Source: Streptomonospora litoralis
GTDB taxonomy: Bacteria > Actinomycetota > Actinomycetes > Streptosporangiales > Streptosporangiaceae
DNA length: 64,000 bases
NCBI RefSeq assembly: GCF_004323735.1
Contig: NZ_CP036455.1
Span: 1,483,101 to 1,547,100 of the forward strand
Direction of reading: 5' to 3'
Of this stretch, positions 20,059-56,255 are shown piece after piece; positions within the stretch are counted from its first letter, which is position 1, and each line of letters begins with the position of its first letter. The notes under the pieces are model-generated. The model was not told the DNA's origin. It worked only from the letters and a program-made list of their open reading frames with translations, and ran no database searches. A program made the position numbers and the translations under genes.

Positions 20059-21026
20059 CTAAGCCGTGTTTAAGAAGCGCTGGATCGGGCCGTCTCCCAT
20101 GGGCGGCCGGGCCGTGCATCTCGGATCCGCTGCGCGGTCTTGCTGGTCTGCCGGGTGGCGGTTGACTTGGAGGAAAAGCGTCGGCGGTGGCAGCGGAGGG
20201 TCCGTGGGCACCGGGTCGGGTGTGCGCGGGTTGCGCGTCTGGCGGGGGCGGCTCGGGTCTGCTGTGCGGCCTTGTTGGTCTGCCGGATGACGGGCGATCT
20301 TACGGAAAAGCAGCGCCGAGGGCGGCGGGGGCCGGGCCCGTGCCCAACGGGCCGGTTGCCCGCCGGTTGGGCACGCGGCGGGACGGGTCGCGTCCGCTGT
20401 GCGGCCTTGTTGGTCTGCCGGAAGTCGGGCGACCTCACGGAAAGGCGGCAGTGAGGGCGGCGGACGGTCGGGCCTGCGGTTACCGGTTCGGGTGCTCGCC
20501 GGTGGCGGTGGCGGTGGCCGGCGAGGCGGCGACGACGGCGGCGGGGCCGGGCCTGGTGTGGTCCCTGTGGTCACCGCCCCGGCCGCGGGTGGTCGAGCCC
20601 GAGGGCTGCCGCCCGGTCGGTGCGGGTCTGATGCGGGGCTCCCGGCGGCGGTCATGCGGCCGGATCGGGGCCACGAGCGACGTGTCGTCGCCCCCGACCC
20701 CCGATCCGGCGGACCCCCGGGGCGTGCGACCACCCGCGGCCGCGCCCCGCCGCGCGGCCTCCGGCGTGTGCGGGCCCGGTAGGGGACACGGCGATACCCA
20801 GCCGGCCCACCGGCGCCGGTAGGTCCCCTATGCCGGTCCATCCGGCGATGATCGTGAACTTATGGCCGCGGAATACGCTTACCTGCGACCATAAGTTCAC
20901 GATAGACGCGATAGGCGCAGGCCCGACCATCCGCCATCGTCGCCGCCGCTTTTCAGTCAAGTCCGCCCGCCACCCGGCAGACCAACAAGGCCGCACAGCA
21001 GACCGGCGTTCTTGAACACGGCTTAG
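20059..21026. repeat. Non-coding island 2 with terminal inverted repeats
   Basis: The left end CTAAGCCGTGTTTAAGAA (20059-20076) and the right end TTCTTGAACACGGCTTAG (21009-21026) are inverted repeats with 17 of 18 matches. Homology continues inward through GGTCTGCCGG...CTGAAAAGCGGCGG-like sequence. GGTCTGCCGG occurs forward at 20145, 20277 and 20412 and in reverse at 20974. A module at about 20515-20690 recurs in island 4 near 55045-55240. The 53-bp palindrome is at 20851. Open frames here are Arg/Pro/Gly-rich and unsupported. The right end overlaps the stop codon of the minus-strand MpaB gene. Confidence 0.75.
20851..20903. repeat. 53-bp palindromic repeat, copy B
   Basis: The outer arms ATCGTGAACTTATGG (20851-20865) and CCATAAGTTCACGAT (20889-20903) pair perfectly, with further partial pairing inward. 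It has the same length as copies A and C and lies in island 2, inverted relative to copy A when the flanks are compared. Confidence 0.8.
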
Positions 21027-21865
21027 CCTCGCCCGCCGATCGGCCGCCTGTGCCCGCGGGCGGCCCGGTTGCGCCCGCTTCCCGAGGCCCGCTTGCGCAT
21101 GTCGCGCAGGTAGAAGTCGCGCGGCAGCGTGCGCACCGCCGGCGGCAGGCGCGGGTAGACGGCGCGGACGACCGCGAGGAGCCGGTCGAAGCGGCGCTGC
21201 TGGACGGGACCCCACGCCAGCCCGAACCCGTCGCGCACGTGCGGGGGCAGCAGGCCGGCGGCGAGGAAGCGCTGTACCCGCACCAGCGCCCGCACGACCG
21301 GGTGGGCGGGGTGGAACAGGTCGCGGGCGATGGCGCGGGCCGTGTCGTCGACCTCGATGGAGGCGACCATGTCCGCCCAGTACCGGTCGAAGTCGGCGCG
21401 GGTGGCGGGCCAGTACTCGCGCGGGCAGCCCAGCGACGTGGCGAAGACCGCCGCCCCGGCGTACACCTCGTCCTTGTCCTTTGGGGCCATCGGGCCGCAG
21501 ACGAGTTCGTAGACGTGCATGTCGCAGGCGTAGAGCGTGGCGGCCACCCACACCTGCAGGTCGGGGTCCCGCGCGTCGTAGCCCGGGCCCACGACCCGCT
21601 TGTGGATCGCGCGCACGATCGCGGAGACCCGCTCGGCCTCCTCGGCGGTGCCGAACATCAGCCCGTAGACGAACACCAGCGTCCCGCGCAGCCGGTCGAC
21701 CGGCCGCTGCGCGAAGTCGCTGTGCTCACGGACGCCGCGGCCCACCCCGGGGTGGGCGATCTGCAACAGGATCGCGTACGCCGCCGCACCCAGGACCACG
21801 GCCTCGCGGTAGACCCGGTGCTCCGGAGACACGTGTCGAGTTTGCCGATCCGCCACGGTGATCAT
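21023..21865 (-). CDS. Oxygenase MpaB family protein (DUF2236), second copy
   Basis: The 280-residue DUF2236 protein has YREAVVLGAAAYAILLQIAHPGV, HSDFAQRPVDRLRGTL and FVYGLMFGT. A conserved ATLYACDMHVYELV and a C-terminal basic tail (KRASGSGRNRAARGHRR) follow. It belongs to the same broad family as the gene at 19090 but to a different subfamily. ATG 21865 overlaps the MarR stop (ATGA), making it the third gene of a PfpI-MarR-MpaB operon. Its TAA stop (21025-21023) lies inside the terminal inverted repeat of island 2, so the repeat insertion may have set the C-terminus. The substrate is unknown; a heme-dependent oxygenase role is inferred from family. Confidence 0.85.
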   Translation of the reverse strand: MITVADRQTRHVSPEHRVYREAVVLGAAAYAILLQIAHPGVGRGVREHSDFAQRPVDRLRGTLVFVYGLMFGTAEEAERVSAIVRAIHKRVVGPGYDARDPDLQVWVAATLYACDMHVYELVCGPMAPKDKDEVYAGAAVFATSLGCPREYWPATRADFDRYWADMVASIEVDDTARAIARDLFHPAHPVVRALVRVQRFLAAGLLPPHVRDGFGLAWGPVQQRRFDRLLAVVRAVYPRLPPAVRTLPRDFYLRDMRKRASGSGRNRAARGHRRPIGGRG

Positions 21866-22389
21866 GGTAGTCGGCCCGGCGACGCGACGCCGGGAGCTGT
21901 GGTCTCCTCGGCCGCGATGTCGTCCAGCGCCCTGTTCAGCCCGTGCAGCGCCTCCACCGCTGACGCCAGCCGGTCGGGGCCCATCTCGGCGCTCAGGCGG
22001 AGGGCCAGGGCGCGGTGGGCGGGGTGGATGCGGCGGACGGCGGCGTAGCCCTCGGTGGTGGGGCGCAGCAGTTTGGCGCGCCGGTGGGCGGGGTTGGGTA
22101 GGTACTCGGCCAGGCCGTGCTCGACCAGCAGGTGGGCGACGCGCTGCACGCCTTGGCGGGTCATCCCCATCGCCCGGGCGATATCGGCCACCGGCAGCGG
22201 CTCGTGCAGAACCGCACCCAGCACCTGCCACCAGGCCGCTGTCAGTCCCGCCGGGCGCGCCAACTCCTCGGCCGCGGCCAGGAACCGCCCGTTGAGCCGG
22301 AAGGACGCCAGCGCTGCAGCCGAGAGCAGCGCCTGTGCGTCGTCCTCGCTTGCTGCTGTGGCTCCGTCGTCGGGATGCGGGACGCTCAC
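21862..22389 (-). CDS. MarR family transcriptional regulator
   Basis: The 175-residue MarR-type regulator has a winged helix: LTAAWWQVLGAVLHEPLPVADIA, then the recognition helix MTRQGVQRVAHLLVEHGLAE and the wing NPAHRRAKLLRPT. GTG 22389 overlaps the TGA of the upstream PfpI gene (GTGA), and its own TGA overlaps the MpaB ATG. It probably represses its own operon by binding the 35-bp inverted repeat at 23003-23037 that overlaps the promoter. The inducing ligand is unknown. Confidence 0.9.
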   Translation of the reverse strand: MSVPHPDDGATAASEDDAQALLSAAALASFRLNGRFLAAAEELARPAGLTAAWWQVLGAVLHEPLPVADIARAMGMTRQGVQRVAHLLVEHGLAEYLPNPAHRRAKLLRPTTEGYAAVRRIHPAHRALALRLSAEMGPDRLASAVEALHGLNRALDDIAAEETTAPGVASPGRLP

Positions 22390-23003
22390 GACGACATCAG
22401 CACCTCGTAGGCGTCGGGGTCGCTGAAGGCGTGCAGGCGGTACCAGGCGTCCAGCGCCTCGGGGCCGTACAGCTCCAGTTCGGCGAAGATCTCGCGGGCG
22501 AAGGCGAGGGGATCGGTGGGCCCGGCGGTGATGAGGCCGCCGGCGTTCACCGCGGGTTCGTCGCGGTAGTGGGCGGAGCCCGCGTAGCCGGTGGCGGCGA
22601 GGTACTCGGCGACGGCCGATGTGTGCGGGCGGTCGTCGAGCAGTCCCTCGCGCGCCAGGCCGGCTGTGGCCCCGCAGATGGCCGCCACCGGCACCCCGGC
22701 GGCGAGGAACGCGCCGGCGGCGCGGGCGTAGGGCGCGAGCGCCGCCGGGTCGGTGTCCCACAGCGCGGCGCCCGGAAGGATCAGCATGGCGCTGGTACCG
22801 GGGTCGAGGTCGGCGAGTGCGAAGTCGGGCAGTATCCGCACTCCGCCCATGGTCGTGACGGGCTCGCCGGTCGGGCCGACCGTGGCGACGCTGAAGTCGC
22901 GGCTCTCCCGGGAGCCGCCGCTGCGGATTCGGGCGACCGCGTGGCCGTACTCCCAGTCGGCGAGGGTGTCGTAAACCGCCAGATGGACTGTTGCCGTACT
23001 AAT
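22386..23003 (-). CDS. DJ-1/PfpI (glutamine amidotransferase-like) protein, start uncertain
   Basis: The conserved protein begins TVHLAVYDTLADWEYGHA and contains MLILPGAALWD, with the nucleophile elbow VAAICGATAGLAREGLLDDR (Cys in AICGAT) and HTSAVAEYL. It is a DJ-1/PfpI-superfamily protein of the PfpI-like amidotransferase subgroup, possibly a hydrolase, chaperone or ligand-modifying enzyme. No in-frame ATG, GTG or TTG exists near the conserved start; the only one is ATG 23141, whose extension would read through the promoter. The boundary here is an ATT at 23003, where transcription is predicted to start, so a leaderless, unusual start is possible. Confidence 0.75.
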   Translation of the reverse strand: MSTATVHLAVYDTLADWEYGHAVARIRSGGSRESRDFSVATVGPTGEPVTTMGGVRILPDFALADLDPGTSAMLILPGAALWDTDPAALAPYARAAGAFLAAGVPVAAICGATAGLAREGLLDDRPHTSAVAEYLAATGYAGSAHYRDEPAVNAGGLITAGPTDPLAFAREIFAELELYGPEALDAWYRLHAFSDPDAYEVLMSS

Positions 23004-23038
23004 GACAACATATTGTCGAAAAGACAGTATGTTGTCAA
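23003..23038 (-). promoter_or_regulatory. Promoter with overlapping MarR-type operator
   Basis: On the minus strand, TTGACA (23038-23033), 17 nt, and CAATAT (23015-23010) form a near-consensus housekeeping promoter. The same bases are an inverted repeat, TGACAACATATTGTC (23003-23017) and GACAGTATGTTGTCA (23023-23037), matching at 14 of 15 positions. A repressor bound here would cover the promoter completely. It is the least GC-rich short stretch in this part of the window. Confidence 0.75.
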
Positions 23039-23597
23039 AGTCTGACAGTTCTCCTTCAGGGGCGATCGCCGCGCTGTGGCCGGTCCCAGGCGGTCCTCGG
23101 TGGCGGACCCGATCGAAGGTCGCTGTGCTGCCCGTGCGCACGTCGATGCGTAAAGTGAGTAGCCGTGTGCTATATGTGTTCGTGTGCAGGCAGTGCGGGC
23201 GGCGAGCCCATCATGGGTTGAATCGCGGCCCGATACGGGCGGGCGGTTGCTCGATCGGCTGTCTGGCGGCGGTTATCGTGTCAGTGGCCGTGTCATCGAG
23301 TCACGGCCCGGCGGCATACGGCGAACGCGTCGAAGCGGGCGCCGGCCCGCTTCCTGCTGCTCCGGTTCGCGGTGCCCCCCGGCTTCGGCCGCCGATGCGG
23401 ACTCGGGCTACGGGAGATGTCTGCGTACGTGCCCCCTCGCGTGCGAGGCATATTCCGCGCGACCGCCCCGACGGGGGCGCGCCTTATCCGGGCACGATTC
23501 CGGAACGAGGTGGCGCCGCAGTGGACGGCGGTCGGCTGCGGCGTTAACGAAGACAGTCCGTTCCCTTTGCTCCCAGTCGAAAAGAGCCATACGTTCC
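23039..23597. other. Intergenic region before the sulfotransferase operon
   Basis: Open frames cross this stretch, but their codon use is unlike neighbouring genes (poor third-position GC) and I recognise no product. I see no promoter strong enough to name. A frame containing VFVCRQCGRRAHHG was considered as a zinc ribbon and rejected. Confidence 0.4.
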
Positions 23598-24542
23598 ATG
23601 AGCATGGATCTTCTCCGCAAGATGAACTCGGCGCTCGGCGCGACCACTGGCCTTGAACTGCGCAGAGTCCGCAAGCGGCCGGCGTCTGCGGCCACGTCGA
23701 CGGTCCAGAAGAAGCCGAAGAAGCGGGACGTCGCCTTCCGCCCGCCGGAGAATCCCGCGGTCGACCGCCTGCTGGACCGCCCGATCTTCGTCATCTCCCC
23801 GGTCCGGTCGGGCTCGACGCTGCTGCGGCTGCTGCTCAACGGCCACTCGCAGCTGCACGCTCCGCACGAGCTGCACATCCGCCGCCTGGAGGTGCACTTC
23901 CGCACCAAGCTCTCCCAGCGCGCGATGGATGCCTGCGGACTGCAGCGCGGCGACATCGAGCACCTGCTCTGGGACCGGGTGCTGCACCGCGAACTCGTGC
24001 GCGCCGACAAGGACTTCATCGTCGAGAAGACCCCCAGCAACGCCTTCGTCTGGAAGCGCATCGCCGCCTGCTGGCCCGACGCCCGCTTCATCTGCCTGCT
24101 GCGCCACCCGGCCTCCATCGCCAAGTCCTGGCACGAGGCCGACCCCGAGAAGCGCACCGCCGAGCAGGCCGCCGAGGACGCGCTGCGCTACATGAACGCC
24201 GTACAGCGCGCCCGCGAAGGGCTGCCCTCCTCCCACACCGTGCGCTACGAGGACCTCACCGCCGACCCGGCGGGCGAACTGCAGCGCATCTGCGACCACC
24301 TGGACCTGGAGTTCGAGCCGCGGATGCTGGAATACGGCGGTGCCGAGGGCGGGCTGACCAAGGGGCTGGGCGACTGGAAGGACAAGATCCGCTCCGGGAG
24401 TGTCCAGCCCGGCCGCACGCTGCCCGGCGCGGACGAGATCCCCGAGCTTCTGCACGACATCAGCCGCACGTGGGGCTACCTCGACGAGAAGGCCGGCGAC
24501 CGGACCGCGACCGGCGACCGGGAAGGGGCGGCCGCCACGTGA
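23598..24542 (+). CDS. PAPS-dependent sulfotransferase
   Basis: The 314-residue protein has the sulfotransferase 5'-phosphosulfate loop FVISPVRSGSTLLRLLLNGH (near residues 65-84) and the 3'-phosphate binding segment ICLLRHPASIAKSWHE. RYEDLTADPAGELQRICDHL follows. It transfers sulfate from PAPS to a hydroxyl of a glycan or other acceptor. There is no signal peptide, so it acts in the cytosol on a precursor. It is the first of three genes joined by 4-nt overlaps with an unknown protein and a GT4 glycosyltransferase, which argues for a sulfated cell-surface glycan or glycolipid. ATG 23598 is chosen, with ATG 23604 as an alternative. Confidence 0.88.
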   Translation: MSMDLLRKMNSALGATTGLELRRVRKRPASAATSTVQKKPKKRDVAFRPPENPAVDRLLDRPIFVISPVRSGSTLLRLLLNGHSQLHAPHELHIRRLEVHFRTKLSQRAMDACGLQRGDIEHLLWDRVLHRELVRADKDFIVEKTPSNAFVWKRIAACWPDARFICLLRHPASIAKSWHEADPEKRTAEQAAEDALRYMNAVQRAREGLPSSHTVRYEDLTADPAGELQRICDHLDLEFEPRMLEYGGAEGGLTKGLGDWKDKIRSGSVQPGRTLPGADEIPELLHDISRTWGYLDEKAGDRTATGDREGAAAT

Positions 24543-25033
24543 ACGCCCGCCCCCGAAACCCGCACGCGGAGGTCGCCGAAATCTGGCCGCGCGACGGCGC
24601 CGTGCGGGTCGTCGGCGACCTCCACGGTCTCGCCGAAACCGCCTCCGGCCGCTGGTACCTGGTGGTCGCGCTGCGCGACTCCGCTGTCCGCATGCAGTAC
24701 GGAATGACAGTGAACGGCGACCGCTTCGACGCTTCGGTGCCGGCGGAGGACTTCGTGCCCGCCGACTTCTCGCTGCAGGCCGAAGGCGCCGCCTGGGACC
24801 TCTTCGCCTCTCCCGAGGAGCGGTTGGAATCGACCGACACCGACGACTGGCTGCGCCTCGGCCGGCACCTCGACGACGTCCGGGACAAGAAGAAGATCAT
24901 GGTCTTCCCGGTCCAAGAGGTCGAGTCCGACGGCGCGTACATGTCGGTGCGGCCCTTCTACACCGTCAACGACAACCTCTCCGTCGGCGCGAGGCCCGGC
25001 TCGTCCGCCCCATTCGGCAAGGAATCGCCATGA
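24539..25033 (+). CDS. Hypothetical protein in a glycan operon
   Basis: This 164-residue protein is not recognised. It looks like an all-beta domain: HAEVAEIWPRDGAVRVVGDLH, WYLVVALRD, DRFDASVPAEDF and DLFASPEERL. The C-terminal RPFYTVNDNLSVGARP resembles the beta-sandwich modules that accompany actinobacterial glycosyltransferases and teichoic-acid-type polymerases. No signal peptide or membrane segment is present. The GTG start overlaps the sulfotransferase TGA, and its TGA overlaps the GT4 ATG, so it very likely works with them. Confidence 0.8.
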   Translation: MNARPRNPHAEVAEIWPRDGAVRVVGDLHGLAETASGRWYLVVALRDSAVRMQYGMTVNGDRFDASVPAEDFVPADFSLQAEGAAWDLFASPEERLESTDTDDWLRLGRHLDDVRDKKKIMVFPVQEVESDGAYMSVRPFYTVNDNLSVGARPGSSAPFGKESP

Positions 25034-26235
25034 GGATCCGTTACCTGCTGCTCAACGCCTTCGGCACCGGCGGCACCATCCGCACCGTGTTCAACCAGGC
25101 CAACACGATGGTGGGGCTGGGAAACCAGGTCGAGATCATCAGTGTCACGCAGCACAAGGACGAGCCGAACTTCGCACTCGACGAGCGGATCGGGCTGAGC
25201 ACCATCGTCGACCAGCGCTCGGAGAAGGGCGCCGACCGCTCCCGCTCCGGGCTGGCCCAGCGCTACCGCCTGTGGGAGCGCGCCCGGCTGCGCAAGCTCG
25301 CCGGTTCGGTCGTGCCCGCCGGTGAGTTCGCCGCCGATGCGTTCACCCGCCACGTCGAACGCGAGGTGATCCGCTACCTCAAAGGCGTGCACGACGGCAT
25401 CCTGGTCACGACGCGGCCGGGGCTGAACATCCTGGCCGCGCGCTACGCCGACCCGCGGCTGATCCGGGTGGCCCAGGAGCACATGAACCTGGGCACCCAC
25501 CGCCCGGACGTGCAGGAGGCGGTCAAGAAGTACTACCCGCGCTTCGACGCGGTCGCGGTACTCACCAACCGCGACCGCGAGGACTACGAGAAGCTGCTGC
25601 CGGGCACGCGCCTGGTGCGCATTCCCAACGCCGTGCACTCGCTGGAGCAGAAGCCCTCCGACCACAGCAGCAAGATCGCCCTCGCGGCGGGCCGGCTGGG
25701 CCCTCAGAAGGGCTTCGACATGCTCATCCCGGCCTTCAAGAAGGTCGTCGAGCGCCACCCGGACTGGCAGCTGCGCATCTTCGGCACCGGCAAGAAGAGG
25801 GACGAGCTGCGCGCGCTCATCGAGAAGCACCACCTCTACAACCACGTCCTGCTGATGGGTCACACCGACCACATGGACGACGAGCTGGCCAAGTCGTCCT
25901 TCTACATCCTCAGTTCGCGGTTCGAGGGACTGCCGATGGTGGTCATCGAGGCCATGGCCCACGCGCTGCCGGTGGTCAGTTTCGACTGCCCCACCGGCCC
26001 GGCCGACGTCATCACCGATGGCAAGGACGGGCTGCTGGTACCGCCCAAGAACATCGACGCCCTGGCCGAGGCGATCTCCAAGATGATGGCCGACCGCGAG
26101 CTGCGGTCGGCCATGGGCGCCGAGGCGCTGAAGACGGCCGAGAGCTACGGCCCGCAGACGGTCCACCCGATGTGGGAGGAGCTGTTCAGCGACCTGGTGC
26201 GCACGACCGGCAAGAACCCCGACGCCGCGGCTTGA
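25030..26235 (+). CDS. Family 4 glycosyltransferase
   Basis: The 401-residue GT-B enzyme has an N-terminal FGTGGTIRTVFNQANTM (donor/acceptor loop) and a C-terminal Rossmann half. That half has AAGRLGPQKGFDMLIPAF, LRIFGTGKKRDEL and the GT4 signature SRFEGLPMVVIEAMAHALPV with SFDCPTGPADVI. The EGLPMVVIEAM Glu residues bind the nucleotide sugar. CPTGP is typical of poly-glycosylglycerol or amylovoran-type GT4 enzymes. It ends the sulfotransferase operon. The role is inferred to be assembly of a surface glycan; donor sugar and acceptor are unknown. Confidence 0.88.
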   Translation: MRIRYLLLNAFGTGGTIRTVFNQANTMVGLGNQVEIISVTQHKDEPNFALDERIGLSTIVDQRSEKGADRSRSGLAQRYRLWERARLRKLAGSVVPAGEFAADAFTRHVEREVIRYLKGVHDGILVTTRPGLNILAARYADPRLIRVAQEHMNLGTHRPDVQEAVKKYYPRFDAVAVLTNRDREDYEKLLPGTRLVRIPNAVHSLEQKPSDHSSKIALAAGRLGPQKGFDMLIPAFKKVVERHPDWQLRIFGTGKKRDELRALIEKHHLYNHVLLMGHTDHMDDELAKSSFYILSSRFEGLPMVVIEAMAHALPVVSFDCPTGPADVITDGKDGLLVPPKNIDALAEAISKMMADRELRSAMGAEALKTAESYGPQTVHPMWEELFSDLVRTTGKNPDAAA

Positions 26236-26538
26236 GCCGACTCCGGGCACGGGGGTCTCCCTGGACGGCCGCGGGCTGTCCAGGGATTCCTCGCGCCCCT
26301 GGGCGGGTCGAGCGGCGGTCTCGCACGCGGTTCGGCGAGACGGCCTCGGGCGGCGCCGGCGGCGGCCGCCACTGCACAGCGGGGGCGGCCGCGGCGGCGT
26401 GCGGGCGGGCGCCCTAGAGTCGGTCGAGGAGGCGGGCGGCGTCCCCGGGGACGCCGCCTCGACCTTGACCCTTGCCCGAGGCGCCCGCGGGCCGAGTCGG
26501 TGCGGCCGCGAGCGCACCTGCCCAGAAAGGACGGCCCA
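26236..26538. other. Intergenic region with two hairpins
   Basis: CCCTGGAC (26259-26266) pairs with GTCCAGGG (26278-26285) and may end the glycan operon. A perfect 24-bp palindrome, GGCGGCGTCCCC (26435-26446) and its complement (26447-26458), lies in the leader of the next gene. Positions 26383-26408 are identical to 29622-29647. AAAGGA near 26526 is the Shine-Dalgarno of the next gene. Confidence 0.5.
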
Positions 26539-27723: not shown

Positions 27724-27782
27724 GCGCCCGGCCCCGCGTCACGCCGTCGCGGCGATGCCGCGCGGAAGGCGCGGCCGTCGCC

Positions 27783-40639: not shown

Positions 40640-41850
40640 TTCCGGCCAGCAGGTATCGGGCTTGGACGCGGGTCGGGTATCCGGGAGCCTGGTAGAACTT
40701 GGGTGGGTTGCTGGGTTCTTGAGGTCCTGGGTTCCTGAGTTCCGCGTGCCGCTCGGCTCCGCTCGGCTTGCTGCCGCCTGCGGTGGGCTGTGCGGCCTTG
40801 GCACCGGGCGGGTGCAAGGTGTCCTGGACGCAAAAGGCGGCGGCAACGGCGGCATGGGGCTGGGCCCGTGCCCACCGGACAGGGTGCCCGCCGGTTGAGC
40901 GCCCGGCGAGGCGGCGAGGGCGGTGAAGGGCTGGGCCTGCGGTTGTCGGGTCGGGTGCTCGCCGGTGGCCGTGTCGGCGGGGCGGCTCGGGTCCGCTGTG
41001 CGGCCTTGTTGGTCGGCCGGGAGGCGGGTGGCCTGACGGGGAACGACGGGCGGCGAGGACCGCGAAGGGTCCGGCCCGCGCCCACCGCGCCGGGCGCTCT
41101 CCAGAAGCGGTGCTCGTGTTCGGCGGGCAGTGGGGGCCGTCCCCCGGGGTGGGTATTCATCACAACACCTCCGTGCGGAGCCGGTGTTGCACTCACCCCT
41201 GAACCCGCGGCCGCTGTCTGGTCGAAATCCTGCGTTGGGCGGCACCGGTGCCATCGAGGCTTCTCCCGACTATCGCGAACTTATGGTCGCGGAATGCGCA
41301 TTCCGGCGGCCATAAGTTCACGATAGAGGCCGGGTGAACCGGCATACCGGACATACCGGCGCCGGTTGGCTGGCGTGGTATCCCCGTGTTCCGACCTGGC
41401 CAGCACCGGCAGGAGATCGCGCGGTGTGGCGCGGTCGCCGGGCCAGGCCCAACCATCCGCCGTCGCCGCCGCATTTCAGTCAAGTCCACCCGCCACCCGG
41501 CAGACCACAAGGCCGCTCAGCGGACCTTGGCCGCCCTCGTCGGGCGCGCCACCGGCGAGCACCCGGCCCGTTTCGTGCGGGCTCGGCCCTCCGGCGCCGT
41601 TGGTGCTGCTTTTCCGTTCAGGCGTCCCGCCGCCCGGCAGGCTACAAGGCCGCTCAGCGGACCCCGGCCGCTTTCGCCGGGTGGGTGACCGCCACCGGGC
41701 ATGCCGCATCGAGGCCCGCCAGGCCCGCCAGGCCCGGAGGGGCCAACGAGGCCCAACAAGCCGCACATCGGACTCGACGCGACCGCGCCGGTAGTCGAGG
41801 GCACTCGCTCTCCGGTGGGAGCCGTGCGGTGGGCGCTTTCCGGCATAGCC
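40640..41850. repeat. Non-coding mosaic repeat island 3
   Basis: This 1.2-kb stretch between the eRF1-like gene and bioY has no supported gene. It shares modules with the other islands: GCGGCCTTG-type units near 40790 and 41000, GGGTGCTCGCCGGTGGC near 40955, and a segment near 41205-41260 matching island 1. The 53-bp palindrome is at 41272. Reverse GGTCTGCCGG units (41497-41506 and a variant near 41634) each precede a RAGGCCGCTCAGCGGACC-like string. The 18-bp terminal repeat seen in islands 2 and 4 is not recognisable here, so this may be a decayed copy. Confidence 0.65.
41272..41324. repeat. 53-bp palindromic repeat, copy C
   Basis: The arms ATCGCGAACTTATGG (41272-41286) and CCATAAGTTCACGAT (41310-41324) pair with one mismatch; the centre carries GGAATGCGCATTCC, itself palindromic. 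It is collinear with copy A: both follow a GTCGAAA-CCTGC...CACCGGT-CCATCGAG module and both precede a CCGGCAT...ACCGGCGCCGGT module. Confidence 0.8.
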
Positions 41851-46275: not shown

Positions 46276-46367
46276 GATCGTCGACGCGGGCTTGCGGCTG
46301 CGGGCTGTGCAGGAACCCTGTCGCCCCCCCCGGGGGCGGATTACTGCGGGGGTCGCGGCGGTGAGGC

Positions 46368-46403: not shown

Positions 46404-46425
46404 GGCTGGTGTCCTCCCGCCGGGT

Positions 46426-47571: not shown

Positions 47572-47665
47572 CGCGCTCCCTAGTCCGCGCGCTCCGAGCG
47601 CGCCGCCGTCTTCCGATTGCCGCCCGCCCGCGTCGCGGCCGGGCTCCGGCCGAGTCGTGCGCCGC

Positions 47666-48871: not shown

Positions 48872-48916
48872 GGAACCTCCGAATGAAGCAGGTGGAGCCG
48901 GTGTGGGGGTGGGGTG

Positions 48917-49675: not shown

Positions 49676-49728
49676 GTGGCTCCTTCGATTCGGTGGTCCG
49701 GGACACATCGGGCCGATCCTATCCGCTT

Positions 49729-49748
49729 CATACCGACCGGGTGGTATG
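49729..49748. promoter_or_regulatory. Candidate TetR-type operator upstream of the fabG-fadE operon
   Basis: CATACCGACCGGGTGGTATG is an imperfect 20-bp palindrome with perfect 6-bp ends. It resembles the ACCGACCGGT-like sites of TetR regulators that control lipid-degradation genes in actinobacteria. It lies 54-73 bp upstream of the FabG-like ATG and in the region shared with the divergent amidohydrolase gene. No regulator gene is adjacent. Confidence 0.5.
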
Positions 49749-49955
49749 TGGGTCACAGCAGTTGAGAAGGCGCGGAGGGACGGCGGCTCGTGTCGAAAAT
49801 CTTCCATGGCCACAGTGGGACCGTAAGACCCTGACGACGCGGCGAGCGGAAGGCACTACCGTGGTCGCCCGGGCCGAGCGGACCGCACAGGATGCTCGAG
49901 CCCGACTCCACCTGTGCGGTGCGTCCATGCTCCCGGCCGAATCGAGGCACTGGCG

Positions 49956-50711
49956 TTGTTCGACGCCCACCTCCACATCATCGATCCCCGCTTCCCCCAG
50001 CCCGGCAATGCCGGGTATCGCGCCGACCCCTTCACCGTCGCGGACTACCGCGACCGGGTCCGGGCGCTGGACGTCACCGGCGGCGCCGTCGTGGCGGGGT
50101 CCTTCAACGGCACCGACCAGGACTACCTGGTGGCGGCGCTGCGCGAGCTGGGACCCGCGTTCGTGGGCGTGGCGCAACTGGCCCCCGACACCTCCGACTC
50201 CCACCTGCGCGACCTGCACGCGGCGGGCGTGCGCGCCCTGCGGCTGAACCTCCACCGCAGCGGGGTCGACGACCTGGACTCCATGGTGCAGCTCGGCAGG
50301 CGCGCGGCCGAACTGCTCGGCTGGCCCACCGAGATCTACGTCGACTCCCGCGAGCTGAGCGCGCTCGCCCCCCGCATCGCGCCGCTGCCGCGGGTCAGCG
50401 TCGACCACCTCGGGCTCTCGCGGGAAGGTCTGCCCGCACTGCTGGCGATGGTTGGCTCGGGCGCGCGCGTCAAGGCGACCGGATTCGGCCGCGGCGACCT
50501 CGACGTGCCCGCCGCCCTGCGCGCCATCGCGGAGGTCAACCCCGGCGCGCTGATGGCCGGTACCGACCTGCCCAGTACGCGCGCTCCGCGTCCCTTCGCT
50601 CCGGATGATCTGGACCTCGTCGCCGAGGCGCTGGGCCCGCGCCATGCCGAGGCGGCGCTCAGCGCCAACGCCCGCGACTTCTACGGCCTGTCGGTGTCCG
50701 GACTGCGGTGA
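49956..50711 (+). CDS. Amidohydrolase-2 family metal-dependent hydrolase
   Basis: The 251-residue TIM-barrel hydrolase (COG3618-like) begins LFDAHLHIIDPRFP with the HxH metal ligands. It continues VVAGSFNGTDQDYL, GVRALRLNLHRSGVDD, RVSVDHLGLSREG (His ligand), and LMAGTDLPSTRAP (Asp ligand). Likely substrates are lactones or small amides of catabolic pathways. A TTG at 49956 with GAGG 8 nt upstream gives the family's usual short N-terminus; GTG 49914 is the alternative. It is divergent from the fabG-fadE operon. Confidence 0.82.
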   Translation: MFDAHLHIIDPRFPQPGNAGYRADPFTVADYRDRVRALDVTGGAVVAGSFNGTDQDYLVAALRELGPAFVGVAQLAPDTSDSHLRDLHAAGVRALRLNLHRSGVDDLDSMVQLGRRAAELLGWPTEIYVDSRELSALAPRIAPLPRVSVDHLGLSREGLPALLAMVGSGARVKATGFGRGDLDVPAALRAIAEVNPGALMAGTDLPSTRAPRPFAPDDLDLVAEALGPRHAEAALSANARDFYGLSVSGLR

Positions 50712-51138
50712 GGGCGGGCGCCACGCGCGGTCGCGCACGGTGACGGGCGCGCCCGGCCGCGCGCGCCGGGCAGAGGCGGTGGCCGCGGACGCGGTCGCGC
50801 AGCGCATCCGCGCGGACGCGCCGCGTGGGTGCGGGCGCGCCGCGCCGCGGCCGCCGAGGCGCCCGGTGGGGATGGCACCCGCTGTGCCGAGGTGGTGGCA
50901 CCACCGTTCTGGTAGGGTCTACCGGCCACTACTCGCCGTAGCGGAATTCCTCGTCGATTCGGCGGTATCGTGACGCTGTGAATCCGCCCGCGCTGCCCGT
51001 GACCGGCCCCACTTCCGCAACCGGGCAACCGCCCGGCGCGCTCCACCGGGCGATCACTCCTCGTCAACCCGATGTTGGCCAGGAGCGGTGAGCCTGGAAG
51101 ACGGGCCCATCAGGACCGAGTGGAAAGAGGCAGTGGCC
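50712..51138. other. Intergenic region upstream of the GDPD transcript
   Basis: The first 200 nt are extremely GC-rich with no recognisable gene. Near 50890-50935 there is a short hairpin, GGTGGT-GGC-ACCACC, followed by GGTAGGGTCTACC, itself palindromic. TAGGGT may serve as a -10 element. Nothing further is supported. Confidence 0.35.
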
Positions 51139-51255
51139 ATGTCGCTCGCCGGCACCCCGACGCGCAACACGCCCGACTCGGCCGTACGCCACAGGGCGGC
51201 CGCCGGGACCGCGGCAGTCGGCTTCGGGCGCACCCCGCGGGGGTGGCGGCGGTGA
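51139..51255 (+). CDS. Small protein (38 aa) coupled to the GDPD gene
   Basis: This ORF begins at ATG 51139 with GGAAAGAGG upstream, and its TGA overlaps the GTG of the phosphodiesterase gene (GTGA). Third codon positions are almost all G or C, like real genes here. The product starts MSLAGTPTRNTPDSAVRHR and ends RTPRGWRR; it is basic and has no membrane segment. I do not recognise it. It may be a small protein or a translated leader that controls the downstream start. Confidence 0.5.
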   Translation: MSLAGTPTRNTPDSAVRHRAAAGTAAVGFGRTPRGWRR

Positions 51256-52010
51256 TCGTCGTGGCCCACCGGGGGGCCTCCGGCCACGCCCCCGAGAACA
51301 CCCTGGCCGCCTTGCGCATGGCGCGCGAGCGCGGCGCCGACATGGCCGAGATCGACGTGCGCCAGACCGCCGACGGCGCCCTCGTCGTGCTCCACGACGC
51401 CTCGCTGCGGCGCACCACGGACGTCGCCGAGGTGTTTGCGCAGCGCCGCAGCTGGAACGTCCGCGACTTCACGCTCGCCGAGCTCCGCCGACTCGACGCC
51501 GGAGCCTGGTTCGGCGCGGAGTTCGCCGGCGAGCGCGTCCCCACCCTGCAGGAGTGCCTGCAGGTATTGCGCGACGAAGGTCTGGGCGCGCTGGTGGAAC
51601 TGAAGGTGCAGCGCCGCGATCGCGCGATGGCGCGGCGCCTCGCCGAGGAGATCCGCGCCGACCGCCACTGGCGCGAGGCGGGCTCGGAGGGGCGGCTCAT
51701 CCTGCAGAGCTTCGACTGGGTCACCCTGCGGGGCATGGCCGGCGACGTCCCGGGGCTGCACACCGCGGCCCTGGGCAAGACCTACGGCCGCTACGGCCTG
51801 CGCCGGATCGCCCAGTACGCCCGCCTGATCAACCCGCACCACCTGCGGGTATCGGCGCCCTACGTGCGCCACGCCCACGCCCAGGGTCTGTCGATGTTCG
51901 GCTGGACCGCCAACAACCACCAGGCCATCCGCCGGCTGATCCGCGACGGCGTCGACGGGATCATCACCGACTATCCCGACCGCGTCCACAGCACGCTGCT
52001 CGCCGCCTGA
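51252..52010 (+). CDS. Glycerophosphodiester phosphodiesterase
   Basis: The 252-residue GDPD enzyme has the catalytic VVAHRGASGHAPENTLAA (first His-Arg), AEIDVRQTADGALVVLHDASLRRTT (metal-binding Glu/Asp and second His), and VELKVQ. The C-terminal part is GLSMFGWTANNHQAIRRLI with DGIITDYPDR. It hydrolyses glycerophosphodiesters to glycerol 3-phosphate and an alcohol; lacking a signal peptide, it is probably cytosolic. GTG 51252 overlaps the stop of a 38-codon ORF, which suggests translational coupling; GTG 51243 is less likely. Confidence 0.9.
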   Translation: MIVVAHRGASGHAPENTLAALRMARERGADMAEIDVRQTADGALVVLHDASLRRTTDVAEVFAQRRSWNVRDFTLAELRRLDAGAWFGAEFAGERVPTLQECLQVLRDEGLGALVELKVQRRDRAMARRLAEEIRADRHWREAGSEGRLILQSFDWVTLRGMAGDVPGLHTAALGKTYGRYGLRRIAQYARLINPHHLRVSAPYVRHAHAQGLSMFGWTANNHQAIRRLIRDGVDGIITDYPDRVHSTLLAA

Positions 52011-52372
52011 GGGCACCGCCACCCGGATCACGCGCCCGCGCGCAGCGGATCCGGGCTTCCGGCGGCCGTCGGCACCAGATCGCAGACAGCCGCGCGGCGC
52101 CTTCGGATCCGGCGGTTCCGCGGCAGAACGGTATTTCCGGCCGTCCGCCGCTACCCGCGTTTCAGCCGATGAGCGCGTCGCCGCGAATCCCCGCCGAAAA
52201 GTCTGCGGCGAACTACTCGCTTTCTCTGAAGTCCGGCCCATCGGTGCCCTAGGATGCGTGCAAGCGGAGAATGCACGTGCATATGGCTCTTGCGCGTGGG
52301 CACGCAAGGAGGTTCCGTGCGCCGGAATTCCGGTTTTCGGAACCCGACCGAGACGACTGCGAGGGGATCGCG
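52011..52372. other. Intergenic and promoter region of the ATPase gene
   Basis: No gene is supported. TAGGAT (52250-52255) is a plausible -10 element; a -35 is not clear. The perfect palindrome ATGCACGTGCAT starts about 15 nt downstream of it, near the likely transcript start. GAGGGG is the Shine-Dalgarno for the GTG at 52373. Confidence 0.4.
52271..52282. promoter_or_regulatory. Palindromic operator upstream of the ATPase gene
   Basis: ATGCACGTGCAT is a perfect 12-bp palindrome. The identical site occurs at 54464-54475 upstream of the DUF397 gene, with an 11-of-12 variant at 54500-54511. The most economical reader is the XRE protein encoded between them. Confidence 0.6.
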
Positions 52373-52939
52373 GTGACCGGACAACCAGCCCGCGAATCAA
52401 CAGGAAGAGTCGGCAACGGGGAGCGTCCGAGGCCGGTCGGGGCTCCCTCACCCAGAGCGTGGTGGTCGTCGGCGCTGCTGAGCGGGCCGCTGGACGCGGC
52501 CGCCGCCACGTGCCACGCCCGCCTCGAGGCGCTCTGTTGGAACCTGGAGGCCGATACCGGAGCGGCGGCCGTTGCTCGGGAGGTCTGCGCCGGAGTGCTC
52601 GGGCAGTGGGAGATGGCGGCTCGCGCCCCCGACGTCGAACTGGTCGTCTCCGAGCTCGTCACCAACGCCCTGCGGCACGGACGCCGCGTCCGCACGACGG
52701 CGGGTGCGGGTCTGCACGGTGCGGAGGCCGACGACCCCATTCAGATGAGTCTGCTCCGGCGCGGCTCCGAACTCGTCTGCGCCGTCCGCGACCGCAGCGA
52801 CCGGATGCCCGAACGGCGCGAGCCCGGCCTCCGGTTCGAGAGCGGCCGGGGTCTGCACCTTGTGTCCTGTTTCTGCAGCGGGTGGGGGGTTCTGCCTACC
52901 CTGCCCTCCGGAAAGCACGTCTGGGCACGTTTCGGGTGA
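52373..52939 (+). CDS. HATPase_c_2 (RsbW/SpoIIAB-like) ATP-binding protein
   Basis: The 188-residue single-domain ATPase of the anti-sigma type has N-box DVELVVSELVTNALRHGRR, then AVRDRSDRMPERREPG at the G1 position and ESGRGLHLVSCF as the lid/G2. The lack of a DxGxG-type G1 is common in these actinobacterial proteins. They accompany XRE-DUF5753 regulators and DUF397 proteins, as here, and may act as protein kinases or anti-sigma-like partners. GTG 52373 follows GAGGGGATCGC. The shared palindrome upstream suggests co-regulation with the DUF397 gene. Confidence 0.85.
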   Translation: MTGQPARESTGRVGNGERPRPVGAPSPRAWWSSALLSGPLDAAAATCHARLEALCWNLEADTGAAAVAREVCAGVLGQWEMAARAPDVELVVSELVTNALRHGRRVRTTAGAGLHGAEADDPIQMSLLRRGSELVCAVRDRSDRMPERREPGLRFESGRGLHLVSCFCSGWGVLPTLPSGKHVWARFG

Positions 52940-53147
52940 CCTGCTCCGTTCGCCGACCCCGCGAACACGGGCCGGCGGCGACCGCGCACCGGCGGAATTC
53001 CGCAATCGGCGGGGTTTCCGTGCTGCGGCCATCGAGCTATCGGCAGGATCGGCGATATCGTGGGGTGCGCGTGGGTGTTCCGCGCGGCGCGGCGGCCCCT
53101 GCACACAGGTCGGGCCGCGGGGAGCGACGAGTAGGGAGGCAGCGGCT

Positions 53148-54026
53148 GTGGACATAGCTCGTCTGAAGCGGGGGAGCGGTCCCACAGTCCGCCGTATGCT
53201 GCTCGGATCCGAACTGCGCAAGTACCGCGAGGCCCGTGGGATGTCCCGCGGCGAGGCGGGCCACTACATCCGCGGTTCGGAGTCCAAGATCAGCCGGATG
53301 GAACTGGGACGGGTCGGCTTCAAGGTCCGCGACGTCGAGGACCTGCTGAAGTTGTACGGCGTTACCGACAAGGACCAGGTGCAGACCATGGTCCGCCTGG
53401 CGCGCGACTCCAAGAAGCCGGGCTGGTGGCAGGAGTACGGCGACGCGCTGCCCAACTGGTTCCAGGTCTACGTCGGCCTTGAGGAGGCCGCCACGCGAAT
53501 CCGCGTCTACGAGGCGCAGTTCGTGCCCGGCATGCTGCAGACCGAGGAGTACGCCCGCGCGGTCATCGCGGCGGGGCGCCCCATCGCCGACCCCAAGGCC
53601 GAAGACCGGGTGGCGGTGCGAATGCGGCGCCAGCGCCACATCGAGGGCGACGGCGGCTGCAAGCTGTGGGCGATCATCGACGAAGCCGCGGTGCGCCGCC
53701 CCGTCGGCGGGCCCGACGTCATGCGCGGGCAGCTGGAGCGGCTGATCAAGCTGAACGAGCGCGCCAACATCACACTGCAGATCATCCCCTTCAGCGCGGG
53801 TGCGCACGCCGCCGAGGCCGGGTCGTTCACCATCCTGCGCTACCCCGACTTCGGCCTGTCCGACATCATCTACCTGGAGCAGCTCACCGGCTCCATGTGC
53901 CTGGACCGCCGCCCGGAGATCGACGCCTACACCATGGCGATGGAGCGGCTGAGCGTCATCGCTCAACCGCCCGACCGCACCAAGGACATCCTGCGGAGCA
54001 TGATCGACGACCTGCAGTCGTCGTAG
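53148..54026 (+). CDS. XRE family regulator with DUF5753 (WhiJ/Scr1-like)
   Basis: The 292-residue protein has an N-terminal helix-turn-helix (LGSELRKYREARGMSRGEAGHYI with RGSESKISRMELG) and the DUF5753 sensor domain from about residue 90. That domain has NWFQVYVGLEEAATRIRVYEAQFVPGMLQTEEYARAVI, LWAIIDEAAVRRPVGG, and ITLQIIPFSAGAHAAEAGSF. In Streptomyces this family (WhiJ-type) represses genes with DUF397 partners and affects differentiation. GTG 53148 has GGGAGG upstream. It lies between the ATPase gene and a convergent DUF397 gene. Confidence 0.9.
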   Translation: MDIARLKRGSGPTVRRMLLGSELRKYREARGMSRGEAGHYIRGSESKISRMELGRVGFKVRDVEDLLKLYGVTDKDQVQTMVRLARDSKKPGWWQEYGDALPNWFQVYVGLEEAATRIRVYEAQFVPGMLQTEEYARAVIAAGRPIADPKAEDRVAVRMRRQRHIEGDGGCKLWAIIDEAAVRRPVGGPDVMRGQLERLIKLNERANITLQIIPFSAGAHAAEAGSFTILRYPDFGLSDIIYLEQLTGSMCLDRRPEIDAYTMAMERLSVIAQPPDRTKDILRSMIDDLQSS

Positions 54027-54049
54027 CAACGGGCCCGGCGAACGAGCAG

Positions 54050-54152
54050 AGCCCCGCGGCGCTGCGGCCTGAGCGGCCGGCGCTCCGCGGGGCTGCGTTG
54101 GCTCTGCGGGTGTGTGCCGTCGGCGGCGCCGCGGGGGTGTCGCGGCGCCGCC
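54050..54152. terminator. Two strong hairpins between convergent genes
   Basis: AGCCCCGCGG (54050-54059) pairs with CCGCGGGGCT (54085-54094). A second, perfect 12-bp stem, GGCGGCGCCGCG (54122-54133) with CGCGGCGCCGCC (54141-54152), follows with a 7-nt loop. They lie between the XRE gene and the convergent DUF397 gene, so each strand has a terminator-like structure. Confidence 0.7.
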
Positions 54153-54172
54153 GGGTGCGCTGAAGGGCTGCT

Positions 54173-54406
54173 TCAGCCGAGCAGGTTGTCGAAGTCTCCG
54201 TCCTTGGCGCCGTGGATGAGGGCGTCGATCTCGGCCTGGGTGTAGACGAGGGCGGGGCCGTCGGGGAAACGGGAGTTGCGCATCGCGATGGAGCCGTCGC
54301 CCAGGCGGGCCATCTCGACGCACGCGCCCTGCGAGTTGCTGCGCCGGCTCTTCTGCCAGCTGACGTCCTGGAGTTCGGTAGCCGAGATGCCGTTGTAGGC
54401 GCTCAT
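54173..54406 (-). CDS. DUF397 protein
   Basis: The 77-residue DUF397 protein has LQDVSWQKSRRSNSQGACVEMA, IAMRNSRFPDGPALVYT and EIDALIHGAKDG. In Streptomyces DUF397 proteins pair with XRE-DUF5753 regulators and are thought to modulate them. Usually the pair is encoded in the same direction; here the two genes converge. AGGAG lies 8 nt before ATG 54406. Its upstream region has one perfect and one near-perfect copy of the palindrome found before the ATPase gene. Confidence 0.9.
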   Translation of the reverse strand: MSAYNGISATELQDVSWQKSRRSNSQGACVEMARLGDGSIAMRNSRFPDGPALVYTQAEIDALIHGAKDGDFDNLLG

Positions 54407-54439
54407 GGAAAACTCCTGTTCTCTTTGGGGAGCTATATG

Positions 54440-54511
54440 GTGCACAGCACGATGCACTATCGTATGCACGTGCATTAGCACCGTACTTTGAGCAGGATAG
54501 CGCACGTGCAT
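54440..54511. promoter_or_regulatory. Cluster of palindromic operators upstream of the DUF397 gene
   Basis: ATGCACGTGCAT (54464-54475) is identical to the site at 52271-52282; GCACGTGCAT at 54502-54511 is a second copy one base short of the full 12-mer. GTGCAC (54440-54445) and GATGCACT nearby look like half-sites. The region is unusually AT-rich for this window and must hold the DUF397 promoter on the minus strand (TATAG at 54437-54433 is a possible -10). Confidence 0.55.
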
Positions 54512-54639
54512 CGCGCTGTCCTCCCCTTTCGCAGCTTTATCGGCAGGAACGCAGACCGCCGGAACGACGGGGGCCCGGGAACTCCCATTCGCGGGTCCCC
54601 GGGCCTCGGCGGGATGTGCCGCCTGCGGCGTCCGTAGGT

Positions 54640-56255
54640 CTACGCCGTGTTCAAGAACGCCGGTCTGCTGGGCGGCCTTGTCGGGGCTTGTCGGTCTGCC
54701 GGGTGTCGGGCGGACTTCACCGGAAAGCCGCGGCGACGGCGGCGGACGGCTGGGCCTGCGGCCACCGGTTCGGGTGCTCGCCGGTGGCGGCGGCCGATGG
54801 AGGGCGGCTGCGGTCTGCTGGGCGGCCTTGTCGGTCTGCCGGGTGTCGGGCGGACTTGGCTGAAAAGCGGCGGCGACGGCGGCGGATGGCTGGGCCTGCG
54901 GCCACCGGTTCGGGTGCTCGCCGGTGGCGGCGGCCGATGGAGGGCGGCTGCGGTCTGCCGGGTTGCAGGTGGTCTTCACTGGAAAAGCGGCGGCGAGGAC
55001 GGCGGCGGACGGCTGGGCCCGCGCCCGCCGGTACCGGTGCCCGCCGGTGGGGCGGCCGACGAGGCGGCGACGACGCCGGCGGGGCCGGGCCCGCGGGAGT
55101 CGGGGCGGCGGTCACCGGTCCCGGCCGCGGGTGGGCGAGCCCCGAGGGCGCCGCCCGCTCGGTGCGGGTCTGATGCGGGGCTCCCGGCGGCGATCATGCA
55201 GCCGGATCAGGGCCACGGGTTGCACGTAGGTGCGGCCCCATCCGCCTCGGTGTGCGACCCCCGCAGCGTAATTCCGCGATACGGAACAACACGGGGTGGT
55301 TTGCCCGCCAATGCCCGAATCACCAGTGGACCCGCGCCCGCCCTGCGGCGGCGACGGCCCACGAAGCGCGCCGAATGGCGCGAAAACGCCCCCGGCGTCG
55401 ACTTTTCGTGCACCTCGTGGCCACCGCGTCCGCCGACGCCGCCCGCAAAACGGGCATAGACCCCCAAAAGCCGACCCCATCGGGCGGCGGGGCCCCGGCG
55501 GCCGCGCCCGGGCGCCACGAGCGACGTGTCGTCGCCCCCGGCCCCCGATCCGGCGCGGGCGCCGTGCGGGCACCCGCGACCGCGCCACACCGCGCGGGGC
55601 CTCCGATGCCGGCGCCCGGGCCCGGTCGGAACACGGCGGCGGCGCCTGCCGACCCGGCGCCCGCTATGTCCGGCGTGCCGGAGCCGGCCGCGGAAGTCGT
55701 AGCGATCGTGGCCGAATTCCCAAGAAACGCCGCTGGATTTCGTCATCCGGGCACGATCGCCGCGCCGCCCTGCGACATAACGGGCCCGCGAGCGCCTCCC
55801 GGCTCCCCGGCTTCCTCGCCGATCCCGTCGGGTGGGCCACCGGCGGGCACCGGAACCGACGCCCGCGGGCCCGGCCCCATTGCTGCCGTCGCCGCCCCTC
55901 GCCGACCACCGCCACCGGCGAGCCCCCGACCCGACAACCGCGGACCGGACCCACCGCCGTCCTCGGCGCCCGTCGTTCCCCGTCAGGCCACCCGCCGCCC
56001 GGCAGACCGACAAGGCCGCCCAGCAGACCCGAGCCGCCCCCCGCCGGCCGCCGCCATCGGCGGTGCCCGCTCCCTCGACTGCGGGCCCCGGCCCGCCGCC
56101 GTCCGCGGTGCCCGCTGCTCCCCGTCGATCAGCCGGCCGCCCGGCCGGGGGCAAGGCCGGGCAAGTTCGGGCAAGTCCGCGTAGCGGATGGGAGCCGTAC
56201 GGCCCGGCCGCCCATGCGAGCCGGACCGATCCAGCACTTCCTAAACACGGCTTAG
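54640..56255. repeat. Non-coding island 4 with terminal inverted repeats
   Basis: The left end CTACGCCGTGTTCAAGAA (54640-54657) and the right end TTCCTAAACACGGCTTAG (56238-56255) are inverted copies of the 18-bp terminus of island 2. The left end continues like island 2's right end (CGCCGGTCTGCTG), and the right end continues like island 2's left end (GCTGGATCGG...GGGCGGCCGGGCCGT), so the end types are swapped. Inside, 55045-55240 matches 20515-20690 in the same orientation, and ACGAGCGACGTGTCGTCGCC is identical at 55517 and 20673. No gene is supported. The right end supplies the znuA stop codon. Confidence 0.75.
54662..55000. repeat. Tandem repeat of about 140-150 bp
   Basis: Units begin at 54662, 54812 and (partial) 54952. 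The first two share GGTCTGCTGGGCGGCCTTGT, GGTCTGCCGGGTGTCGGGCG, a GAAAAGCGGCGGCGACGG-like string and GGTGCTCGCCGGTGGCGGC over most of their length; the first has an extra 11 nt or so. It is the left part of island 4 and the most regular form of the module shared by all islands. Confidence 0.7.

What the first reader, a model, noticed from the sequence alone, without database searches (positions are those of the whole stretch)
20059..56255. Dispersed non-coding element with 18-bp inverted termini and swapped end types
Islands at 20059-21026 and 54640-56255 are both bounded by inverted copies of CTAAGCCGTGTTYAAGAA. Beyond the 18-mer there are two end types, one continuing with GCTGGATCGG-like sequence and one with CGCCGGTCTGCTG-like sequence. 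Island 2 has them left and right, island 4 has them right and left, while an interior block of about 180 bp keeps the same orientation. Islands near 1392-2016 and 40640-41850 share interior modules but no clear termini. There is no transposase gene. This fits a family of non-autonomous or domesticated elements shuffled by recombination at their ends.
Basis: partly seen in the sequence, partly recalled or inferred. Interest (0 to 1): 0.8.

Follow-up and report, generated by a model that had tools for sequence, protein, structure and literature searches.

The report
Foldback-like non-autonomous transposon in Streptomonospora
Between the genes of this actinobacterium sits a large family of gene-less mobile elements that carry the ends of a known type of transposon, whose enzyme was not found in this genome; they often end exactly at the stop codon of a gene and appear to swap their middle parts with each other.

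Summary
The 18-mer occurs 4 times in the window (0 in shuffles) and 54 times in the genome with up to 2 mismatches (0 for the reversed control). It forms the terminal inverted repeats (TIRs) of a dispersed non-coding element of 0.2-1.85 kb. The host is a Streptomonospora.

Of 22 paired elements, 20 have one C-end and one G-end; inward sub-repeat arms flank a core. The ends are not really swapped: the core is inverted relative to them in 3 of 18 orientable elements, island 2 among them.

Congeners show empty sites. The TIRs resemble those of autonomous IS5-type elements in congeners, but this genome has no match to that transposase. In 23 of 68 ends the neighbouring gene's stop codon is 18-mer bases 2-4. 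Near-identical tracts between copies stop short of the ends, which suggests gene conversion. RNA covariation is nearly absent.

Best reading: a MITE-like, foldback-like IS5 derivative, probably immobile now. The nearest described relative I found is BrickBuilt of Porphyromonas. It is a new variant of a known kind. Why a core motif is shared with Streptomonospora sp. PA3 is open.

The parts
20059..20135 (+). Island 2 G-type end, beginning with TIR 20059-20076
20124..20443 (+). Island 2 left arm: three direct sub-repeats (20124-20177, 20255-20309, 20392-20443), spacing 132 and 135
20516..20912 (+). Island 2 core (blk4 20516-20678, mid4b 20667-20912), inverted relative to its ends
20830..20908 (+). 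79-bp 'pal' module with a 19-bp inverted repeat; 34 copies aligned
20951..21026 (-). Island 2 C-type end, TIR 21009-21026
21023..21025 (-). TAA stop codon of the predicted right-hand gene, equal to 18-mer positions 2-4
54640..54725 (+). Island 4 C-type end, TIR 54640-54657
54684..54962 (+). Island 4 left arm: two 139-bp direct repeats, 94% alike
55054..55789 (+). Island 4 core without pal (blk4, mid4, mid4b), canonical orientation
55293..55317 (+). Core motif GGGGTGGTTTGCCCGCCAATGCCCG, also present in arrays of Streptomonospora sp. PA3
55976..56029 (-). Island 4 right arm sub-repeat (inverted)
56179..56255 (-). Island 4 G-type end, TIR 56238-56255
56252..56254 (-). TAA stop codon of the predicted right-hand gene, equal to 18-mer positions 2-4
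1426..1917 (-). Island 1: TIR-less copy (sub-repeat, partial mid4b, pal)
40990..41663 (-). Island 3: TIR-less copy (sub-repeat +, pal and partial mid4b -, two inverted sub-repeats)

Best explanation
A non-autonomous, foldback-like DNA transposon family. Its 18-bp termini (Y-TA-R + GCCGTGTTYAAGAA) are close to those of IS5-type elements with a DUF4096/DDE transposase. Such a transposase moved the elements in trans to YTAR-like sites, very often at stop codons. It is not detectable in this genome now. Between the TIRs lie inverted arms of ~140-bp repeats and a non-coding core. Recombination and gene conversion between copies flip cores, exchange them and probably erode the ends, leaving many TIR-less copies. 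SHOWN: TIRs, end types, dispersal, absence from orthologous sites, stop-codon junctions, core inversions, high-identity tracts that stop short of the ends. INFERRED: trans-mobilisation, loss of the partner, gene conversion as the exchange mechanism.
For: TIR counts and controls. C/G end pairs in 20 of 22. Empty sites: island 2 in 3 of 5 congeners, L013 in 2 of 5, L014 in 5 of 5. At L014 CTGA is present on both sides of the element, and all five congeners end the gene with the same TGA. Autonomous IS5-type elements: termini CTAGGCCGTGTTTAAGAA / CTAGGTCCTGTTTAAGAA in G023 (5 places found, both ends seen in the 4 fetched) and YTAGGCCCTGTTTAARAA in congener G005 (3 copies seen); transposase DUF4096 + DDE_Tnp_1. 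Own genome: 0 matches to the protein, to PF13340 and to PF13359. Convergent gene pairs 29 of 67 against 35 of 248, p=8e-7. Tracts of 98-99.5% identity inside elements.
Against: Target duplication is weak: 4-bp identity in 2 of 22 pairs (shuffle p=0.13), 2-bp identity in 15 of 22 (shuffle mean 11.7, p=0.013). TIR-less clusters prevail: 13 of 15 in an even 400-kb sample, 5 of these 13 being single sub-repeat hits of 53-58 bp. Empty sites come from other species, not strains. L043 and L079 gave no clean empty site. Arrays in PA3 share architecture and core motif but no 18-mer was seen at their ends, so the arrays may not have begun as an IS5 derivative. In two of three frames an incoming 18-mer can itself supply a stop codon, so part of the stop-codon junctions may be made by the insertion. 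No transposition was observed.
Confidence: 0.8

Rival explanations
1. The array and core (arms plus ~700-bp core) is a separate repeat family with its own, unknown way of spreading. It became associated with IS5-type termini in this species; the TIR copies are captures.
For: PA3 has 1.5-2.5 kb repeat blocks (13 loci), dissected in one (L099) into inverted arms, with the core motif in 12 of 16 PA3 loci scanned (loci that had been picked by a search with the core or by the 18-mer). No 18-mer was seen at their ends, while PA3's 18-mers adjoin a different sequence, which by eye also lies nested in array L099. 13 of 15 sampled own-genome clusters are TIR-less. TIR-less loci L085, L088 and L090 are absent from some congeners.
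Against: No precise ends or target duplication were found for TIR-less copies. Erosion of TIRs plus gene conversion explains them without a second mechanism.
Confidence: 0.3
2. The elements are host-functional: structured 3' UTRs, bidirectional terminators or protein-binding arrays between convergent genes.
For: Convergent enrichment. Column conservation in mid4 is strongly uneven: 61 of 246 columns invariant against about 4 expected under a uniform rate. The motif is kept between two species.
Against: Compensatory changes are few: 0 of 45, 3 of 22 and 1 of 61 pairs, with C-A mispairs as well as G-U; one pal pair (columns 27/72) does have both sides changed in 10 of 34 copies, but 8 of 34 break it. 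No Rfam match in the window. The arms' 18-bp motif has 0-1 hits in each of four congeners, against 234 here and 43 in PA3, so no genus-wide host role. Convergent bias also follows from harmless insertion at 3' ends.
Confidence: 0.12
3. A large structured non-coding RNA family, with the TIRs incidental.
For: Predicted hairpins in mid4, mid4b and pal.
Against: Little covariation; the core is inverted relative to the ends in 3 of 18 elements, and the shortest TIR elements (L028, 225 bp; L020, 288 bp) contain no core.
Confidence: 0.03

Closest known systems
BrickBuilt MITE of Porphyromonas gingivalis (PMC4596501; abstract and find-passages seen)
   Same: Non-coding, intergenic, multi-copy; short TIRs like those of IS5-family elements; an internal array of direct repeats; partial copies without full leader or tail; 84-991 nt.
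   Different: Its array is one tandem 23-nt minisatellite. Here ~140-bp repeats form two arms in inverted orientation around a ~700-bp core, with length up to 1849 bp. The paper reports full-length IS5-family elements with matching TIRs in P. gingivalis genomes; here no match to that transposase group was found in the host.
IS5-type insertion sequences (DUF4096 + DDE_Tnp_1; an IS427-like subgroup with TA target is recalled, not tested)
   Same: Similar termini and YTAR-like target.
   Different: No transposase gene; interior unrelated as far as seen.
Foldback (FB/TU) transposons of animals (recalled)
   Same: Long inverted arms built of direct sub-repeats.
   Different: 18-bp TIRs outside the arms; the two ends differ (C and G); bacterial.
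Prokaryotic MITEs in general, e.g. QMITE and Chunjie (PMC10969869, sections 2 and 3 read)
   Same: TIRs, intergenic location, partial copies lacking TIRs.
   Different: The review gives a typical length under 500 bp and AT-rich sequence; these reach 1.85 kb, and islands 2 and 4 have 73% and 77% G+C (window 72%).

Membership tests
Type II MITE / non-autonomous IS5-type derivative | TIRs shared with an autonomous IS | tested here: met
   1-3 differences from the IS termini seen in G023 and congener G005
Type II MITE / non-autonomous IS5-type derivative | No transposase gene inside | tested here: met
   no predicted gene overlaps any of the paired elements covered (crude caller; the one overlap, L027, is not a paired element)
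Type II MITE / non-autonomous IS5-type derivative | Target site duplication | tested here: inconclusive
   2-bp identity 15 of 22, p=0.013; 4-bp 2 of 22, p=0.13; L014 clear
Type II MITE / non-autonomous IS5-type derivative | Insertion polymorphism / empty sites | tested here: met
   between species only: TIR copies; TIR-less
Type II MITE / non-autonomous IS5-type derivative | Small size (<500 bp typical in PMC10969869; 50-1000 in PMC4596501) | tested here: not met
   22 paired elements span 225-1849 bp, 14 of them over 1000 bp
Type II MITE / non-autonomous IS5-type derivative | Mobilised in trans by the IS transposase | not testable with these tools
   needs an experiment
Foldback transposon | Long inverted arms made of direct sub-repeats | tested here: met
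Foldback transposon | Arms extend to the very termini, both ends alike (recalled) | tested here: not met
   C- and G-ends differ after the 18-mer
Structured non-coding RNA | Compensatory base changes | tested here: not met
   0 of 45, 3 of 22, 1 of 61 pairs
Structured non-coding RNA | Match to a described RNA family | tested here: not met
REP/BIME with RAYT | Tyrosine (Y1) transposase partner | not tested
   not searched

The most novel reading that the evidence does not exclude
An inverted-array element with a selectively conserved core motif (TTCCGnGATnCGrAA...GGGGTGkTTTGyCC..AATGCCCG) is a distinct class of bacterial repeat. It amplified separately in two Streptomonospora species, spreads and is homogenised mainly by recombination between its arms, and only sometimes borrows IS5-type ends to jump. 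The motif would then be a binding site for a host or element factor.
Probability: 0.15. Interest if true: 0.65.

Novelty: new variant of a known kind. Interest (0 to 1): 0.45.

Why it matters
It shows a bacterial non-autonomous transposon with foldback-like anatomy, an estimated ~200 clusters and ~1.4% of the chromosome (extrapolated), in a genome with no match to the partner transposase group. Insertion that leaves a stop codon in place would explain how such elements pile up between convergent genes. The near-identical cores make it a natural system for measuring ectopic gene conversion in an actinobacterium, and the core motif shared with a sister species is a concrete target for a binding test.

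Tried and rejected
Structured RNA: Rfam gave nothing in the window at gathering thresholds, and 4 sub-threshold matches of E 0.039-0.48 in five loci. RNAalifold gave 0 of 45, 3 of 22 and 1 of 61 pairs with compensatory changes. Rejected as best reading.

Autonomous copy inside the genome: the only DDE_Tnp_1 hits are 3 copies of another IS (I read it as ISAs1-like, recalled, not tested), with no 18-mer-like ends (up to 5 substitutions) around them; the two weak matches found were single and look like chance. The solo 18-mer at L016:4568 is at a predicted gene's stop codon and no transposase was seen next to it. Transposase families other than PF13340, PF01609 and PF13359 were not searched.

4-bp target duplication as a general rule: not supported. 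Boundaries of TIR-less copies could not be fixed. The Polyangia MAG hit (L145) has two weak mid4 matches (E 0.00018 and 0.59); unresolved. A plasmid look-up to name the host gave nothing useful. Paper searches for Streptomonospora repeats or MITEs, foldback in bacteria, stop-codon/CTAG IS5, gene conversion and MITE and MITE/Streptomyces/IS5 showed nothing on this element among the rows listed (2 to 20 each, of up to 2,403 papers); only the open library was searched.

Gene positions come from a crude GC-by-codon-position caller that I wrote, not from an annotation.
Full report
Setting. The window is G000:C1:1483101-1547100, in a 5.81-Mb genome of two contigs. Congener G004 is Streptomonospora sp. 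PA3: contig lengths of G004 (575506, 370548, 299183, 592284, 559326 and others) equal those of NZ_VTZW01 records named. The host is therefore a Streptomonospora; one search warns that records of the window's own genome may be left out, and none appeared.

Observation. The 18-mer matches 4 times in the window with up to 3 mismatches (mean 0 in 100 shuffles) and 54 times in the genome with up to 2 mismatches, 27 on each strand, against 0 for the reversed control. Reading inward, it continues as one of two end types: C (CGCCGGTCTGCTGTGCGGCC...) or G (GTGCTGGATCGGTCCGGCTCCCATGGG...). Over 58 own-genome regions and the window, a regex allowing 4 substitutions gave 42 C-type and 24 G-type ends; 8 further matches fitted neither and were left out. 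The regions were chosen because they hold the 18-mer or the core.

Anatomy. With profile models of the ends and of four interior modules, 67 own-genome regions and the window were mapped. The canonical order is C-end, inward sub-repeats (spacing mostly 120-140 bp), blk4, mid4, mid4b with or without the 79-bp palindromic 'pal', inverted sub-repeats, G-end; many copies lack some of these. Paired ends define 22 elements of 225-1849 bp: 20 have one C- and one G-end, 2 have two C-ends. Of the 18 C/G elements with a core, 15 are canonical and 3 (island 2, L011, L018) carry the core inverted; 2 have no core. L017 counts as canonical on a narrow score (21 against 28). Thus islands 2 and 4 do not have swapped ends: island 2 has a flipped core. 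Crossing-over between the inverted arms would do this; that step is inferred.

Copy number. In 20 evenly spaced 20-kb stretches (400 kb) there are 15 clusters: 9 with core modules, 2 of these with a TIR, and 6 with sub-repeat hits only (5 of them 53-58 bp long); 5462 bp in all, with 0 hits in reversed sequence. Extrapolated to 5.72 Mb this is about 215 clusters and 1.4% of the chromosome. It is an estimate from a small sample.

Mobility. Flanks of four loci were searched in the five congeners. Island 2: both flanks adjacent in G001, G004 and G005, only the right flank found in G002 and G003. L013: both flanks in G001 and G004, left only in the other three. L014: empty in all five. L043: not informative. 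At L014 the congeners all read GGCTGA at the end of the gene; here the same CTGA precedes the element and is repeated after it. Over the 22 pairs a 4-bp identity is seen in 2 (shuffle mean 0.79, p=0.13) and the inner 2 bp agree in 15 (mean 11.7, p=0.013). A TA duplication is plausible, not proven. Of five TIR-less loci searched, the alignments of L085, L088 and L090 with three congeners each were read and show the element absent, but with no sharp ends. At L088 the flanks lie further apart in PA3 and G001; in PA3 the space holds sequence like its own 18-mer element, in G001 it was not examined. L079 was uninformative and L091 was not examined further.

Stop codons. Of 68 ends in the profile scan, 53 have the nearest predicted gene pointing at the end, and in 23 that gene's stop codon is exactly 18-mer bases 2-4: 17 TAA, 4 TAG, 2 TGA, as at 21023-21025 and 56252-56254. 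A TA target plus the element's own A gives TAA, so the element may complete or even supply the stop; only at L014 did congeners show that the same stop codon (TGA) was there without the element, and at L043 two congeners (G002, G003) have TGA where this genome has TAG. Gene pairs around elements are convergent in 29 of 67 against 35 of 248 control pairs (odds ratio 4.6, p=8e-7), with 34 tandem and 4 divergent. A YTAR target plus selection against gene damage would account for this; in GC-rich coding DNA such sites are expected to be rare (inference).

Partner. Similar termini bound autonomous elements elsewhere. In G023 (same family, another genus; 5 places, 4 fetched) they are CTAGGCCGTGTTTAAGAA and CTAGGTCCTGTTTAAGAA around a 302-aa protein with DUF4096 and DDE_Tnp_1 in the copy examined (L047). 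In congener G005, three copies seen have YTAGGCCCTGTTTAARAA at both ends. That protein has 14 matches in G005, 36 in G002 (mostly in two pieces), 7, 7 and 2 partial ones in G001, G003 and PA3, and 0 in the host; PF13340 and PF13359 also give 0 in the host. Similar elements are annotated 'IS5 family transposase' on actinobacterial plasmids. The C-end 27-mer with up to 3 mismatches is found in 1 of 250 family genomes, the host, 45 times. The 18-mer with up to 1 mismatch is found in 3 of 41 relatives: the host, PA3 and G023.

Exchange between copies. L075/L077 share 1085 bp at 99.5%, L082/L083 839 bp at 98.2%, L035/L086 836 bp at 98.0%. For L075/L077 both tract ends were read and lie within the arms; for the other two pairs the coordinates set against the module map put the tract inside the element, short of the ends. 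Such tracts look like gene conversion rather than whole-element jumps.

Constraint and function. In mid4, 61 of 246 scored columns are invariant in 38 copies, where about 4 are expected under a uniform rate. PA3 has its own 1.5-2.5 kb repeat blocks at 13 loci; one, L099, was dissected and has inverted arms. Of the 16 PA3 loci scanned 12 carry the core motif with up to 3 edits; they had been picked by similarity to the core, so this is not an independent count. A scan of 84,980 species genomes with the exact motif found 14 places in PA3 and 1 in a Polyangia MAG. The arms' 18-bp motif occurs 234 times here, 43 times in PA3 and 0-1 times in each of the other four congeners. Compensatory base changes are few. 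Something in the core is kept, but not visibly as RNA structure. This is the least explained part.

Comparison. BrickBuilt of P. gingivalis (abstract and passages seen) is the nearest described relative that I found: IS5-type TIRs and an internal repeat array. As far as seen it lacks the inverted arms and the core, and it is shorter. Size, inverted arms and the missing partner set the present family apart, so I call it a new variant of a known kind.

Noticed in passing
L017:4441-4604 and 5518-5681: A 164-bp repeat (97.6% alike), tRNA-like by eye, flanks an element on both sides, as if the element sat between duplicated tRNA genes.
   Followed up: no
L209 (G004:C17:477800-479200): At the orthologue of locus L088, PA3 carries sequence 85% alike over 331 bp to its own 18-mer element (L110): apparently an independent insertion in the same intergenic region.
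   Followed up: partly
L145 (Polyangia MAG contig JAUIKB010000163.1): Only non-Streptomonospora record listed with the core motif; two weak mid4 matches in order on one strand.
   Followed up: partly
L148, L149, L150: Three copies of another IS in the host, two of them identical over 1295 bp.
   Followed up: partly
window 50724-50815: ARAGORN calls a tRNA-Ala (cgc) of 92 nt, unusually long for Ala; may be a false or odd call.
   Followed up: no
window 54420-54515: Repeated GTGCA/TGCAC motifs upstream of a leftward gene that looks DUF397-like by eye, possibly an operator.
   Followed up: no
L043 and L024: Short elements (385 and about 330 bp) that keep pal but little of the core.
   Followed up: no
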